DNA from: a virus
Strand: one strand, 5' to 3'
Length of the DNA stretch: 64,000 nt
IMG/VR virus record: IMGVR_UViG_3300045283_000318
Coordinates: 1-64,000 of that record
In this document: positions 3,381 to 13,032 of the stretch, in pieces
How the letters are laid out: every line of letters begins with the position of its first letter
Position numbering within the stretch: position 1 is the stretch's first letter
Position numbers and translations under genes: made by a program
Notes under the pieces: generated by a model
The model's input: only the letters and a program-made list of their open reading frames with translations
Databases searched by the model: none
What the model was told of the DNA's origin: nothing

Positions 3381-3764
3381 CTATTTCTTATTCCAGGGCT
3401 TGAACGCCAGCAGGGTCTCGATGGCGGGCCACTCTCCGGTGAAGGTGATCGCCCGATCGTCAATGGTCAGGAACGCCGGCGGCTTCTCCAGCGGCCACTC
3501 GACGTTCTCCAATCCCGGACCTGCCGGGCTGTCGTACCAGCAGGTGCCGGCCTCGACACGAAGGTAAGTGCGCATGGCGGGAATGCCGCCCGGCTGGTTC
3601 GATCGCGAGCTGAAAACCGCGACGCGGAAATTCGCCATGGCGCCGAGCATGAAGGAGATCGCTCCAGGGACGATCGGATCGGGGATGACGTCGGCGCCCT
3701 TCCATCCGGAGGTGTAGGAGTGGATGACGCCGTCGAAGTCCAGGCAGAGGATCGGTTTTGTCAT
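3381..3764 (-). CDS. HAD-superfamily phosphatase
   Basis: 127 residues. LDFDGVIHSY gives HAD motif I with the nucleophile D9 and acid D11; FSSRS (near residue 51) gives the motif II serine; the acidic motif IDDRA lies near residue 101. The length fits the small cap-less HAD phosphatases common in phages, thought to act on nucleotide or sugar phosphates. It overlaps the Tad1-like gene by an ATGA, so both are made together. Confidence 0.8.
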   Translation of the reverse strand: MTKPILCLDFDGVIHSYTSGWKGADVIPDPIVPGAISFMLGAMANFRVAVFSSRSNQPGGIPAMRTYLRVEAGTCWYDSPAGPGLENVEWPLEKPPAFLTIDDRAITFTGEWPAIETLLAFKPWNKK

Positions 3765-4162
3765 TTCTCGCTCGTTCCCTCGACGCCCCGCTCCATCCGC
3801 TTCAGTGTCCGCTCATAAAGCCAGATAAGAGCCTTCTTGGCGTGAAGGAGCGCCATCTGGTTCTCGTTGCAAGGATAAGGGCCTTCCTGGAAACATTCGA
3901 GGCGGTCGATGACGATCGCCAGCAGGACTTCCTGGGTGATGCCGTTGACGCCCTGTTCGGCGATCGGGCCACACTGGAAAATGATCGTGGCGGCGTTGTC
4001 GTCCTCCGGATCGGGGCAAGCAAGCGCGGCCACATTGCGATGCATCTGCATGCCGGAAATCGCATAGACGTGGCTCGCTCCACCGGCGCCGGGCTCATCG
4101 AGCGCTTGGATATTCAGCTTGTCGTTGAGCGGGTTGGCCTTGTGGGTGTCGATGGTTCTCAT
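3761..4162 (-). CDS. tad1: Probable Tad1-family cyclic-nucleotide sponge (anti-Thoeris)
   Basis: 133 residues from the ATG that overlaps the upstream stop. Conserved blocks are NDKLNIQALDEPGAGGASH, IIFQCGPIAEQGVNGITQE and ERTLKRMERGVEGT. Residues F91, N101, R118 and R122 have exactly the spacing (10, 17, 4) that I recall for the ligand-pocket residues F82, N92, R109 and R113 of characterised Tad1. Tad1 binds gcADPR and some cyclic oligonucleotides, blocking Thoeris and related defences. The assignment rests on memory of the family and not on an alignment. A longer in-frame N-terminus exists but looks non-coding. Confidence 0.7.
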   Translation of the reverse strand: MRTIDTHKANPLNDKLNIQALDEPGAGGASHVYAISGMQMHRNVAALACPDPEDDNAATIIFQCGPIAEQGVNGITQEVLLAIVIDRLECFQEGPYPCNENQMALLHAKKALIWLYERTLKRMERGVEGTSEK

Positions 4163-4368
4163 TTGAACAGCCTCGCCCGGACCGCCGCGTCCTTGGATTC
4201 CAGGAGCTTGCGCAGCGCGACGGTGCGCTCGGGGTTGCGGGGTGTCGTGGTGACGACCCGATGTGCCAGTTCGCAGTAAGGCTTGCTGGCTACCTGCAAA
4301 TGCTCTGGCAAATGTGCGTATTCGAAGAACTGGAGGATGGACTCGATCTCCGTGGGGCCTTCGGGCAT
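4159..4368 (-). CDS. Small helical phage protein next to tad1
   Basis: 69 residues. The pattern FFEYAHLPEHLQ, then CELAHRVV, then PERTVALRKLLESKDAAVRA matches a widespread small phage protein. Two helices joined at TTPRNPERT form a likely hairpin. The pattern also resembles the Acb2/Tad1-type hairpin proteins, so it may be a second signal-binding protein; this is inference. ATGA overlap with the Tad1-like gene implies coupled translation. Confidence 0.55.
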   Translation of the reverse strand: MPEGPTEIESILQFFEYAHLPEHLQVASKPYCELAHRVVTTTPRNPERTVALRKLLESKDAAVRARLFK

Positions 4369-4436
4369 TCATTGTCTCCTCGGTTGTGCGGGCGCAGGTT
4401 ACGCCTGCTTTGGCAGAATGCAATAGCTATTTTTGA

Positions 4437-5231
4437 CTACGGCAGCTCGGGCATTTCCTTGAGGTTTCTCAAAAACTGAGCTTCGGAAGGAGTGTAGTCA
4501 GGGCCCGGCGGTTTAGGTTTACGTTTCTTGTAGGGCTTTTTCGCCGGTCCGCGAGGACGTCCGCGATTTATCGCCGATCCGAGGGGAAGCCCGATCGCCT
4601 GCGCCAGCGTCCAGCCTAGCTTCAGGCGCTGGTACACTATGTTGCGTGACAGGCCAAGCTCTTCGACCAAATCGATCAGGAGCATCTTCTTGCCGTTGTA
4701 GGTCACGAGCACCGAGTTGCGCTTGTTTCGCCCTTGATCCTTACGGCTTATCCACCGACAATTCGTCGGCTCGTAGTTACCATTTACATTGTCTCGCTCG
4801 ATCGTGAACTTCGAGTCCGGCTTGCGGCCCATGTCGAGCATGAAGTTCTTGAAGTCGTTCCAGCGCTCGCAGATCGTAATACCGCGGCCACCATAAATTG
4901 GATACTTCTTGCTACTCGGGTCGAGACACCTGGCGCGCATGTTTATCCAGGATTGGTATTCTGATTTGTACTCGGTGGTGAGCGGAACGGGGCGACCTTG
5001 TTTGTGGATGGGGGCTGAGCATCTTGTTTTACGGCCTTCGCGCAGTTTATCGCGGCCGACGACGATCTCCGCGCCGCACGAGCAGCGGCATAGCCACGTA
5101 ATGCAACGCCCTTTCCGGCCAGCACGTGAGAGCACAGTCAGCTCGCCGAACTTCCGACCCTCGAGCCGAATGATGCGACCTGCATGATATCGTTCAACTT
5201 TTTTTGTGAAAGCCCTCGATCTTACGGTCAT
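4437..5231 (-). CDS. HNH-type free-standing endonuclease
   Basis: 264 residues. The N-terminus has a zinc-ribbon-like CRCSCGAEIVVGRD and C-x-APIHK. The core YQSWINMRARCLDPSSKKY, YGGRGITICERWNDF and NVNGNYEPTNCRWISRKDQ belongs to a large phage HNH-like family, in which a Lys/Glu-Arg-Asp-x-N...N...N-x-R set replaces strict H-N-H. A second DNA-binding helix (GLSRNIVYQRLKLGWTL) follows, with a basic tail. Probably a homing nuclease. It is the first gene of the leftward operon, behind an AT-rich leader. Confidence 0.8.
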   Translation of the reverse strand: MTVRSRAFTKKVERYHAGRIIRLEGRKFGELTVLSRAGRKGRCITWLCRCSCGAEIVVGRDKLREGRKTRCSAPIHKQGRPVPLTTEYKSEYQSWINMRARCLDPSSKKYPIYGGRGITICERWNDFKNFMLDMGRKPDSKFTIERDNVNGNYEPTNCRWISRKDQGRNKRNSVLVTYNGKKMLLIDLVEELGLSRNIVYQRLKLGWTLAQAIGLPLGSAINRGRPRGPAKKPYKKRKPKPPGPDYTPSEAQFLRNLKEMPELP

Positions 5232-8800: not shown

Positions 8801-9319
8801 ATGATTGAGATTAAGCATCGTCTTACCGGCACCGTTCTGTACGCATCCGAGGCTGCAGTCACTGTACGCGAAGCGGTCATAGCCGCTGTAAAAGGTGGCG
8901 CGGACCTTGGTGGCGCGTACCTTGGTGGCGCGTACCTTGGTGGCGCGGACCTTGGTGGCGCGTACCTTCGTGGCGCGTACCTTGGTGGCGCGGACCTTGG
9001 TGGCGCGGACCTTGGTGGCGCGGACCTTGGTGGCGCGGACCTTGGTGGCGCGGACCTTGGTGGCGCGGACCTTGGTGGCGCGGACCTTGGTGGCCAATGG
9101 ATTATACAGGGACAAACCCGTTCCGACGGATATGCATTCTTCCTGCAGCGCCTCACCGCTGACTCCGAACCCATGATCAAGGCCGGTTGCCGCTATTTCA
9201 CGATTGCTCAGGCCGAAGTACATTGGACCAACACACGCGGTGGGACTCCACTCGGTTTCGAAACCCGTGCTATCGTCCGCGCCATGGTCGACACCATGCA
9301 CATCAGGGGGTTGAAATGA
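8801..9319 (+). CDS. Pentapeptide-repeat protein
   Basis: 172 residues; ribosome site AAGGGGAACC. Residues 32-98 are 13 five-residue units A(D/Y)L(G/R)G, the signature of the right-handed quadrilateral beta helix of pentapeptide-repeat proteins, some of which mimic DNA and bind gyrase. Flanks are a small N-terminal beta/alpha cap and a 75-residue C-terminal alpha/beta domain (FFLQRLTADSEPMIKAGCRY). The Tyr/Asp choice at one position is the main variation. Whether it mimics DNA is untested; the coil is short for that. Confidence 0.8.
   Translation: MIEIKHRLTGTVLYASEAAVTVREAVIAAVKGGADLGGAYLGGAYLGGADLGGAYLRGAYLGGADLGGADLGGADLGGADLGGADLGGADLGGADLGGQWIIQGQTRSDGYAFFLQRLTADSEPMIKAGCRYFTIAQAEVHWTNTRGGTPLGFETRAIVRAMVDTMHIRGLK
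8894..9088 (+). repeat. 15-bp tandem repeat, 13 units
   Basis: Unit GGTGGCGCG(G/T)ACCTT. Units differ at only two positions (G/T at 10, one C at 1 in unit 6). The near identity at silent sites means recent slippage or recombination expansion. The repeat has no stop in any of the six frames. Confidence 0.9.
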
Positions 9320-10606: not shown

Positions 10607-10778
10607 TATTCGGCAACGCGTGATCGGCTGTATCAGTTGAATCGATGAGTTCGGCGACCCACCAATCGTGCTCGCCGGGCGCATTGTGATCCTTGCAAGC
10701 AAGGTCGAACGTGTCGTAGGGGCCGTAATATAGCAGCCCTTCCACGGGGTTGCCTGCTATGACGATGAATTTAGGCAT
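10593..10778 (-). CDS. Hypothetical small protein
   Basis: 61 residues from MPKFIVIAGNPVEGLLYYGPYD. The motif IAGNPVEG..YYGPYD and HDWWVAELID recall a small phage protein with a single beta sheet. It is the last gene of the primase operon and its start overlaps the primase stop; its end overlaps the convergent TIG gene by 14 bases. Confidence 0.6.
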   Translation of the reverse strand: MPKFIVIAGNPVEGLLYYGPYDTFDLACKDHNAPGEHDWWVAELIDSTDTADHALPNIRRR

Positions 10779-13032
10779 AAATCTCACCTGTTTTCTTTCG
10801 CCACATGTTTGCGGTGGCGTTTCCGATTCGCTTCTTGTGCTTCTCGTATCCCAGGTTTTTCAGGATCGCGGCCGCGCGCATGGCGTCACCGATCGTCACC
10901 GAGTCGACGCGCCGCTGGATGAACTGGTTGTCGCATAGGACTTCGTTGACCGTCACCTCGGTTTTTTGTTTCAGTGCCAGATAGTTGGCGATCGGCTCGA
11001 CCCACCCATCGCTTTGCATCCTGTCTTCCTGTTCCGCGCCCGCCGCCTTCCACAGCCGTCCTGGTAGCGCGATGGTCTCTCCGGCTGCCTCGCGGTGCGC
11101 GGCTTCGGCCCAGATCTGGTCCCGGTCCTGCTGCAAGCCTGCGAGATCGATGCGTGACGTGGTGACCGGCCAGAAGCGGCGGTTACCGGTCTGGGATTTC
11201 AGGTATTCGTCATCGTTGGTTGTGGCGAAGAACACGGTGCGGCGCGGCCGGTCGACCCGGAATCGGCCGTAGGCCGGTCTGGCGCGATCGACCTTGCGGG
11301 AGGCGAACGCCTTGACGTGCTCGATATCGGCCTTTTTCATGCCGGTCAGGTCGGCAATTTCGTACAGCCATATCCCGCACATCGCTTCCTGCTGCTCCTT
11401 GTCCTGCTTGGCGAGGATGGACTGGTCCGAGAAGTTTTCAGGCCCGGCCAGAATTTCGATGGCGGTCGACTTGCCCTTGCCTTCTCCGCTTTCGAAAACC
11501 ACGATCTGATCAAACTTGGTGCCAGGCCAGCGCACGCGACGCACCGCGGCGATCAGGGTCAGGCGCCCGATGGCGCGGTTGAGCTCGGTATCAGGGGCGC
11601 CCATGTAGCGCTGCAACCACGTGTCGAGACGGGGCTGGCCGTCCCAGGCGAGGCCGTCGAGATAGTCGAGCACGGGATCATACTGGTGCTCAAGGCAGAG
11701 CTGGGTGCAGGCATCCCGGGTGTTTTCGGTCTTGGGGTCGAAGCCGAAGCGGTGGCGGATCATCTTGCGAATCATCTGGATGGCGTCGTCGGAGAGGTCG
11801 CCGGCCCACTGGTTGATGACGTGGCCGCCGACGGTCATTTTCTCGTGAAACAGGTCTTTCCGGCATTCGATGCCGAGTGCTGCGACTGCGATGCCTGCAT
11901 TGGTGCAGGTCGACTTCGGCTTGTTCTTATCGTCCAGATCCGCAAAGAAGATCGGTTGTTGCCCCCCGAACGCCGCTGGCAGGGCTTGATGCCCGTTGGC
12001 GCGGCCATTAAGGTGGGGCTGTTGCTGGACTAATTGCGGCCCATTCTTGCCCGGGGGCGCTTCTATCGCAGGGGCGCCCCCATTCCACCCGTGCTGCTGC
12101 GCCAGATGGTACAGCGTGCCGACCGACACGCCCGACCGTCGGAAGCTGTCCCACTTGGCTTCGCAGGCCGCCTGCGCGTACTTCTCGCGGCACGTCTGGC
12201 TCCACTCGTCCCAGATCACAAAGCCGAGATCGGTGCCGTCGGGCCGCTCCCACCCCAGATCTTTGAGCGCCATGCCGACCTGGAACCAGGTTTCGTACTG
12301 ATTCGCAGGGATCGCCGACAGCGCCGAGATCAGTCGCGCCTGCTCGGCCGGTGACCATATCGGTTTAAGGCTGTCGGCTAATGCATTAACGTTGCGGGTT
12401 ATTGTTTCCGGTCGGGAAAGATGCGCTGGCAATTGACCCAGATGGTCAAGACCCGTCTCCCGGGGAGTTTTATTTGCAATCTCATAGCCTTGGGACCATT
12501 GTCTTAGCCAATCGGGTAAGGTTGCTACGGGTAACTTCTTGATCCAAGTATAGATCCGGCCGGAAGCATGGCGACTGGGCGCGGCGACGACATACCCCCC
12601 TTCACCCCGGACGTGGACCTTACCCACGGCTGAAGACCGCACTTGAGGCGAATCAGGACGTGTGAGGTAAAAAGCGTGAAAACCGTTTCCTGTCTGCGCA
12701 AGGAGTGTCGCAGGGGGTGCGCCGTGCGCCGCAACCAGCGCCTTGAACTCTTCCATGCCCTCGCGGCCATCGATGTCGATGACGACGAGGCCTGAGCCGG
12801 TTGCGATTCCGATATTGGCATCGGGCCAACGGGCCCACCATTTGCGAATTTGTTCGAGATCATCCGTTGCGTCCTTGAAACCTCTTGCGGTACGGGGATG
12901 CTTACCCACTCCTTTACCATCGGCATGAGCCTTGCCGCAAGTGCACACGCCGTTGACGACCGTGTGCAACGGGAACACCCCCCATTTCATGCGTGCGTAG
13001 GCACACGCAGCAGCGAGCATGTCATTCGACAT
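10771..13032 (-). CDS. Bifunctional primase-helicase (prim-pol + VapE-type ATPase)
   Basis: 753 residues. Residues 1-170 match a bifunctional primase/polymerase domain: WGVFPLHT, KHPRTARGFKDAT, then WPDANIGIATGSGLVVIDID with the acidic pair. A PriCT-like linker follows (ALSAIPANQYETWFQVGMAL near 235). The C-terminal half is the virulence-associated-E/phage helicase type (PVLDYLDGLAWDG, Walker A GEGKGKST near 515, then FFATTNDDEYL and TGNRRFWPV). Together these would synthesise primers and unwind at the phage origin. It is alone on the minus strand with its small partner, between two rightward blocks. Confidence 0.9.
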   Translation of the reverse strand: MSNDMLAAACAYARMKWGVFPLHTVVNGVCTCGKAHADGKGVGKHPRTARGFKDATDDLEQIRKWWARWPDANIGIATGSGLVVIDIDGREGMEEFKALVAAHGAPPATLLAQTGNGFHAFYLTRPDSPQVRSSAVGKVHVRGEGGYVVAAPSRHASGRIYTWIKKLPVATLPDWLRQWSQGYEIANKTPRETGLDHLGQLPAHLSRPETITRNVNALADSLKPIWSPAEQARLISALSAIPANQYETWFQVGMALKDLGWERPDGTDLGFVIWDEWSQTCREKYAQAACEAKWDSFRRSGVSVGTLYHLAQQHGWNGGAPAIEAPPGKNGPQLVQQQPHLNGRANGHQALPAAFGGQQPIFFADLDDKNKPKSTCTNAGIAVAALGIECRKDLFHEKMTVGGHVINQWAGDLSDDAIQMIRKMIRHRFGFDPKTENTRDACTQLCLEHQYDPVLDYLDGLAWDGQPRLDTWLQRYMGAPDTELNRAIGRLTLIAAVRRVRWPGTKFDQIVVFESGEGKGKSTAIEILAGPENFSDQSILAKQDKEQQEAMCGIWLYEIADLTGMKKADIEHVKAFASRKVDRARPAYGRFRVDRPRRTVFFATTNDDEYLKSQTGNRRFWPVTTSRIDLAGLQQDRDQIWAEAAHREAAGETIALPGRLWKAAGAEQEDRMQSDGWVEPIANYLALKQKTEVTVNEVLCDNQFIQRRVDSVTIGDAMRAAAILKNLGYEKHKKRIGNATANMWRKKTGEIYA

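What the first reader, a model, noticed from the sequence alone, without database searches (positions are those of the whole stretch)
3761..4368. Probable Tad1 signal sponge with a coupled hairpin-type partner
The 133-residue protein keeps the spacing of four pocket residues I recall for Tad1 (F91, N101, R118, R122). The 69-residue protein just upstream overlaps it by ATGA and looks like an Acb2/Tad1-style helical hairpin. Together they could neutralise nucleotide signals of Thoeris, CBASS or type III systems. Residue identities and overlap are seen in sequence; the family link is from memory.
Basis: partly seen in the sequence, partly recalled or inferred. Interest (0 to 1): 0.8.

Follow-up and report, generated by a model that had tools for sequence, protein, structure and literature searches.

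The report
Phage Tad1 sponge plus Acb2-like hairpin
A virus of bacteria carries, side by side, a protein that belongs to a known family which soaks up the alarm molecules of bacterial immunity, and a second tiny protein from a very common unnamed viral family that looks like a distant relative of another such sponge.

Summary
On the minus strand, a 69-residue gene (4159-4368) and a 133-residue gene (3761-4162) overlap by ATGA; the second overlaps a HAD-like gene in the same way. The 133-residue protein is a Tad1: PDB sequence matches to solved Tad1s (2.4e-20, 1e-14), a predicted fold whose 20 best Foldseek matches are all Tad1 (best 3.1e-10), and pocket residues N101, R118 and R122 kept in 46 of 46 aligned homologues and F91 in 30 of 30 close ones. 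The 69-residue protein belongs to a large phage family without a Pfam, NCBIfam or PADLOC match (phrog_1761/5120; 315 phage records, at least 489 viral-contig stretches). Three tests tie this family to Acb2: reciprocal profile searches with shuffled and reversed controls, a profile-profile score equal to that between Tad1 and Acb2, and BFVD fold matches where 12 of the 50 rows shown are named Acb2/Tad1 hairpin proteins. It fails the curated Pfam cut-off, so it is a divergent branch. The pairing recurs in two other viral contigs, and other Tad1 genes sit by Tad2 or Acb2-like genes. Most likely: a two-gene sponge cassette. Ligands are untested. The partner family is the new part.

The parts
3761..4162 (-). 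Tad1 homologue, 133 aa (N-terminal beta sheet, helices 77-93 and 99-125; pocket F91, N101, R118, R122)
4159..4368 (-). 69-aa Acb2-like helical hairpin of the phrog_1761/phrog_5120 family (helices 10-15, 22-41, 46-65)
4159..4162 (-). ATGA overlap joining the hairpin gene to tad1 (likely translational coupling)
   Evidence: sequence
3381..3764 (-). HAD-like phage protein, 127 aa, next gene, overlapping tad1 by ATGA at 3761-3764; link to the sponges not shown
   Evidence: phrog_1238 3.3e-10; Pfam HAD_SAK_2 only 0.3
4375..4381 (-). Shine-Dalgarno-like GAGGAGA before the hairpin gene
   Evidence: sequence

Best explanation
A counter-defence cassette of two nucleotide-signal sponges made from one message. 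The 133-aa protein is a Tad1: two protomers interlock so that the C-terminal helix pair of one and the loops and tail of the other form pockets that hold glycocyclic ADP-ribose or cyclic dinucleotides; hexamers hold cyclic trinucleotides at a separate site (established for Tad1 in print, inferred here). The 69-aa protein is a divergent Acb2-type hairpin that most likely oligomerises and holds cyclic oligonucleotides in its own pocket; its charged signature (PRNPERTVALRKLLEAKDAAVRA) differs from that of Acb2, so a different ligand range is likely. ATGA coupling would keep the two in a fixed ratio, so that one phage blocks more than one signal. Shown: Tad1 family and fold, hairpin fold prediction, remote relation to Acb2, gene overlap, recurrence of the pair. 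Inferred: binding, oligomers, coupling, target systems.
For: Tad1: (phrog_2428 2.9e-32). Partner: family of 64 aligned proteins with 15 invariant columns; short helix plus long helix pair at pLDDT 91.8, the plan reported for Acb2 (passages of PMC12043709). An Acb2 profile of 7 proteins without any partner or Tad1 sequence finds 57 of 75 partner-family rows at E<=1 against 1 of 1500 shuffles; of 9302 other ORFs it finds 2. With larger profiles and sets thinned at 80% identity: Acb2 to partner 56 of 70 at E<=0.1, partner to Acb2 28 of 48; reversed sequences 0 both times, shuffles 1 of 3500 and 0 of 2400. Profile-profile score 19.70 against 19.72 for Tad1-Acb2; 0 of 200 column permutations reach it (best 10.9), reversed 2.6, 6 other families at most 8.2. 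BFVD: 12 of the 50 rows shown are 'Acb2/Tad1 hairpin domain-containing protein'. Pair recurs in L019/L092 and L123.
Against: No binding data. The partner does not reach PF24729's cut-off; first profile comparisons were weak (Tad1 0.2%, T4 Vs.4 2%), and hhalign probabilities stay at 9-28%. Foldseek against PDB gave no match at E<=0.001 and no Acb2 row; its profile finds no Acb2 chain in PDB. It does not resemble Tad1 directly (0 of 38). The pairing is rare: 1 of 50 whole Tad1 records holds the partner, 2 of 50 partner records match Tad1, one weakly, none of 4 bacterial Tad1 loci.
Confidence: 0.62

Rival explanations
1. Tad1 is the working sponge and the 69-aa protein is an unrelated small helical phage protein (for example a host-protein inhibitor or a virion-assembly accessory) that happens to be next to it.
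For: Most partner-family loci have no Tad1 in their flanks (79 of 80); one member lies between head-tail connector genes in Gordonia phage Ruthy; PDB fold search found nothing; helix hairpins are a common fold.
Against: Specific, reciprocal sequence relation to Acb2 beyond shuffled, reversed and permuted controls; BFVD rows; the pair recurs in two other contigs with the opposite gene order, and L123 has a second set: a tandem double hairpin and a shortened Tad1. Acb2-type genes also lie next to portal genes.
Confidence: 0.22
2. The 69-aa protein works only with Tad1, as a subunit or modulator that caps or extends the Tad1 oligomer and changes what it binds, rather than as a sponge of its own.
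For: ATGA coupling in the window and closely spaced genes in L019 and L123; the hairpin is the part of Tad1 that builds the pocket (passage of PMC12043709).
Against: The family is far more often found without Tad1, so it must have a role of its own; no direct similarity to the Tad1 hairpin.
Confidence: 0.1
3. The 133-aa protein keeps the Tad1 fold but serves another role, such as a virion protein, as the phage phiKZ homologue is annotated as structural.
Against: Pocket conservation; a review states that Tad1 is naturally present in CBASS-resistant phages, encoded by orf184 (passage of PMC12043709; that this is phiKZ's gene is my reading).
Confidence: 0.05

Closest known systems
Tad1 (Thoeris anti-defense 1; CbTad1 7uav/7uaw/8smd, CmTad1 8kbb, phiKZ gp184)
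   Same: Sequence, predicted fold and pocket residues of the 133-aa protein
   Different: 37% identical to CbTad1 over the structural alignment; below PF24729 detection; paired with a hairpin gene
Acb2 (T4 Vs.4 and actinophage homologues; Pfam PF24729 Acb2_Tad1_hairpin)
   Same: 69-aa protein: short helix plus two long antiparallel helices, aligned in register (F.Y/F.H ... LA ... P..E..A..KL.EA)
   Different: Below Pfam cut-off; family signature has NPERTVALRKLLEAKDAAVRA where Acb2 has GREKALAITKLEEAMFWANAAIAR, so the pocket is probably different
Tad2 (PF11195) and Acb4 (PF13876)
   Same: Also phage sponges; a Tad2-like gene sits next to Tad1 in one related contig
   Different: Unrelated folds; no Acb4 search was made
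phrog_1761 / phrog_5120
   Same: The family to which the 69-aa protein belongs (3.5e-26, 3.5e-16)
   Different: Function unknown in PHROGs; no paper holding these names was found

Membership tests
Tad1 | Significant sequence similarity to characterised Tad1 | tested here: met
   PDB phmmer 2.4e-20 (8kbb), 1e-14 (7uav)
Tad1 | N-terminal beta sheet followed by two long C-terminal helices | tested here: met
   AF2 pLDDT 84.9; 20 best Foldseek rows all Tad1; VIA Z 12.7 over 123 residues, rmsd 3.8. Residues 41-60 and the C-terminal tail are less certain
Tad1 | gcADPR pocket residues (F, N, R, R) | tested here: met
   Aligned; N, R, R 46 of 46 and F 35 of 46 in homologues; that these are the pocket residues is recalled
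Tad1 | Match to Pfam PF24729 | tested here: not met
   No hit for P0001 and three other homologues, while CbTad1 and CmTad1 hit; the model covers only the hairpin and misses many Tad1 genes (25 of 50 Tad1 records hit at all, 3 over cut-off), so I do not take it as defining Tad1
Tad1 | Dimer/hexamer and ligand sequestration | not testable with these tools
   needs protein
Acb2 (69-aa protein) | PF24729 above curated cut-off | tested here: not met
   of 64 scanned, 1 matches, at E 0.054; T4 Vs.4 7.1e-20 as control
[quoted passage not shown]
   (prediction)
Acb2 (69-aa protein) | Remote homology by profile methods | tested here: met
Acb2 (69-aa protein) | Fold match to solved Acb2 | tested here: inconclusive
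   no Acb2 row in PDB search; Acb2/Tad1 hairpin models in BFVD, best E 0.079
Acb2 (69-aa protein) | Hexamer with cyclic di- and trinucleotide binding | not testable with these tools
   needs protein

The most novel reading that the evidence does not exclude
The 69-aa family (phrog_1761/5120), now without a name and spread over at least 315 phage records and hundreds of viral contigs, is a large unrecognised class of nucleotide-signal sponges: an Acb2 branch with a rebuilt pocket and so perhaps a ligand that no known sponge takes. In this phage it forms, with Tad1, a translationally coupled double sponge, one case of a wider habit of phages to place sponges (Tad1, Tad2, Acb2, this family) side by side.
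Probability: 0.5. Interest if true: 0.72.

Novelty: new variant of a known kind. Interest (0 to 1): 0.5.

Why it matters
The Tad1 gene alone would be ordinary. The partner gives an assignable function to a very common unnamed phage family, and a family this conserved whose signature differs from Acb2 may read a signal that known sponges do not; finding its ligand could expose a bacterial immune messenger. The side-by-side sponges also give a simple search rule: small genes abutting Tad1 are candidates for new sponges.

Tried and rejected
Pfam, NCBIfam and PADLOC gave nothing over a cut-off for either protein. A weak DUF6965 row (0.086), dialkylglycine decarboxylase (0.095-0.2) and 'occludin', 'anti-TRAP', 'endopeptidase Rz' labels in phage records were judged noise or mis-annotation. 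Acb4 was considered and set aside because its published fold (three strands with flanking helices, sections 7 and 8 of PMC11722364) is not a helix hairpin. The pattern scan for the window's own Tad1 found no relative. PDB fold search of the hairpin gave only generic helix pairs; the absence of Acb2 there is told, not counted. First profile comparisons failed; the 64 sequences were alike (Neff 2), so wider profiles were built. The decoy-family control is thin: 6 families were left of 37 clusters after dropping those with hairpin hits or under 5 distinct members. The 75 partner rows are 64 plus 11 with some overlap; one search repeats the test on thinned sets. A weak Tad1 match in G019 (3.6e-4; ORF) was not taken as Tad1. 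A HAD-Tad1 link was not pursued.

For alignments I left out near-duplicate loci: A1 holds 63 of 80 loci plus P0002, A4 45 of 63 plus P0001. In one search, 50 of 80 partner records were searched whole, the records of 50 of 63 Tad1 loci (L092's, which holds the partner, was not among them).

Papers: PMC12043709, PMC12657218 and PMC10022894 passages; PMC11722364 outline and sections 7, 8; PMC13348362 part 1 of the text; others only as search listings. That the 69-aa family is unnamed in print rests on searches of open-licence papers; a PDB entry called 'Acb2 homolog 43' (9ptq) shows that others survey Acb2 relatives, and its paper was not found. It did not match the partner profile.

Full report
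WHAT IS THERE. The window is nearly all of a 65,398-base IMG/VR virus record. On the minus strand lie a 69-aa gene (4159-4368) and a 133-aa gene (3761-4162) that overlap as ATGA; the 133-aa gene overlaps a 127-aa HAD-like gene (3381-3764) in the same way. The virus is poorly known: of 10 large proteins scanned against PHROGs, 5 had any match at 1e-5, among them a helicase; a Prim-Pol/VapE-type primase lies at 10771-13032.

THE 133-AA PROTEIN IS A TAD1. It matches phrog_2428 at 2.9e-32 and solved Tad1 chains at 2.4e-20 (CmTad1, 8kbb) and 1e-14 (CbTad1, 7uav), and phiKZ gp184 at 6.7e-17. 122 phage records hold relatives, the nearest in Agrobacterium/Rhizobium phages at 45-46% identity, some labelled 'ABC transporter ATPase'. 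AlphaFold2 gives strands followed by helices 77-93 and 99-125 (pLDDT 84.9). The 20 best PDB matches are all Tad1, the best at 3.1e-10, and nothing else passes 0.001; VIA Z is 12.7 over 123 residues (rmsd 3.8) to CbTad1. In an alignment of 46 sequences N101, R118 and R122 never vary; F91 is kept in 35 of 46 and in 30 of 30 close ones. Pfam's hairpin model misses it, but it also misses other close homologues while hitting CbTad1 and CmTad1.

THE 69-AA PROTEIN IS A DIVERGENT ACB2-TYPE HAIRPIN. It has no curated family, but matches phrog_1761 and phrog_5120. 315 phage records and 489 viral-contig stretches encode relatives. 64 aligned members have 15 invariant columns. The model is a short helix and a pair of 20-residue helices (pLDDT 91.8). 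A hint came from phrog_1454, which matches both T4 Vs.4 (7e-4) and a Gordonia member of the family (0.0065).

Tests of that hint: Acb2-type proteins were gathered from phages (7 of 7 hit PF24729 at 1.1e-12 or better) and from viral contigs (80 loci). An Acb2 profile finds the 69-aa family and not its shuffles or reversals, and the reverse search works too; as a yardstick the Acb2 profile finds 15 of 38 Tad1 proteins, fewer than the 56 of 70 of this family. Of 9302 ORFs that belong to none of the three families, 2 score at E<=1. Profile-profile comparison gives 19.70, equal to Tad1-Acb2 at 19.72, over 59 columns in the expected register, against at most 10.9 for 200 column permutations. In BFVD, after its own family, 12 of the 50 rows shown are named Acb2/Tad1 hairpin proteins, the best at E 0.079 with probability 0.99. 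Against this, PDB searches show no Acb2, hhalign probabilities are low (9-28%), and no link to Tad1 itself is seen (0 of 38). I read this as remote homology to Acb2, not as membership of PF24729.

NEIGHBOURHOOD. Of 80 loci of the 69-aa family, 1 (L019) has Tad1 next door, in the order Tad1 then hairpin. Of 63 Tad1 loci, 2 have the hairpin (L092, which is the same contig as L019, and L123). L123 holds two sets: Tad1 followed by a hairpin, and a tandem double hairpin near a shortened Tad1. Whole-record searches: 1 of 50 Tad1 records holds the family, namely L123's. 0 of 6 fetched phage Tad1 loci (L084-L086, L088-L090) have it within their short flanks, and 0 of 4 bacterial Tad1 loci. So the pair is rare. 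With about 0.6% of phage records carrying the hairpin family, 0.24% carrying Tad1 and an assumed 60 genes a record, adjacency by chance would be expected about 0.01 times in each sample; this is a rough estimate, not a test. Other sponges also sit by Tad1: a Tad2-like gene about 15 bases away in L116's contig, the only Tad2 match in 50 records, and Acb2-like genes in L133 and L129.

HOW IT MOST LIKELY WORKS. From published Tad1 and Acb2 work (passages of PMC12043709), Tad1 holds gcADPR or cyclic dinucleotides in pockets made by two protomers and cyclic trinucleotides at trimer faces; Acb2 holds cyclic di- and trinucleotides. The cassette would block Thoeris, CBASS and perhaps cA3-using type III systems; which of these its host carries is unknown. 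For the 69-aa protein the ligand is open: the family keeps the aromatic-His start and the LA/P/E/A/KL/E core, but has NPERTVALRKLLEAKDAAVRA where Acb2 has GREKALAITKLEEAMFWANAAIAR.

NOVELTY. Tad1 here is a new member of a known kind. The 69-aa family as an Acb2 branch, and its pairing with Tad1, I did not find in the open-licence papers searched, but many papers are not in that library and a PDB entry 'Acb2 homolog 43' points to a survey I could not read.

Noticed in passing
L123 947-1372 and 1563-2084: A 141-aa protein with two 69-aa-family domains in tandem, and a 173-aa protein with a shortened Tad1 domain and a long tail, near a complete Tad1 plus hairpin pair.
   Followed up: partly
L116 contig (G067) 53543-54118: A Tad2-like gene lies about 15 bases from Tad1.
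   Followed up: partly
L133 3476-3682; L129 4851-5213: Acb2-like open frames close to Tad1.
   Followed up: partly
L160 1986-2198: A member of the 69-aa family sits between head-tail connector genes of Gordonia phage Ruthy.
   Followed up: no
L159 1587-2174: In Cellulosimicrobium phage DS1 the 69-aa domain ends a 195-aa protein with a zinc-finger-like part, labelled 'sliding clamp'.
   Followed up: no
L083 1372-1764: A 130-aa protein about 3 kb from a 69-aa-family gene matches Tad1 only weakly (3.6e-4) and may be another hairpin family.
   Followed up: partly
window 8801-9319 (+): A frame with many repeats of the type ADLGGAYLGG, like a pentapeptide-repeat protein.
   Followed up: no
window 4437-5231 (-): HNH endonuclease-like gene just upstream of the cassette (phrog_374 8.3e-59).
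   Followed up: no
L089 659-1351: phiKZ gene 184, a Tad1 by sequence, is annotated as a structural protein.
   Followed up: no
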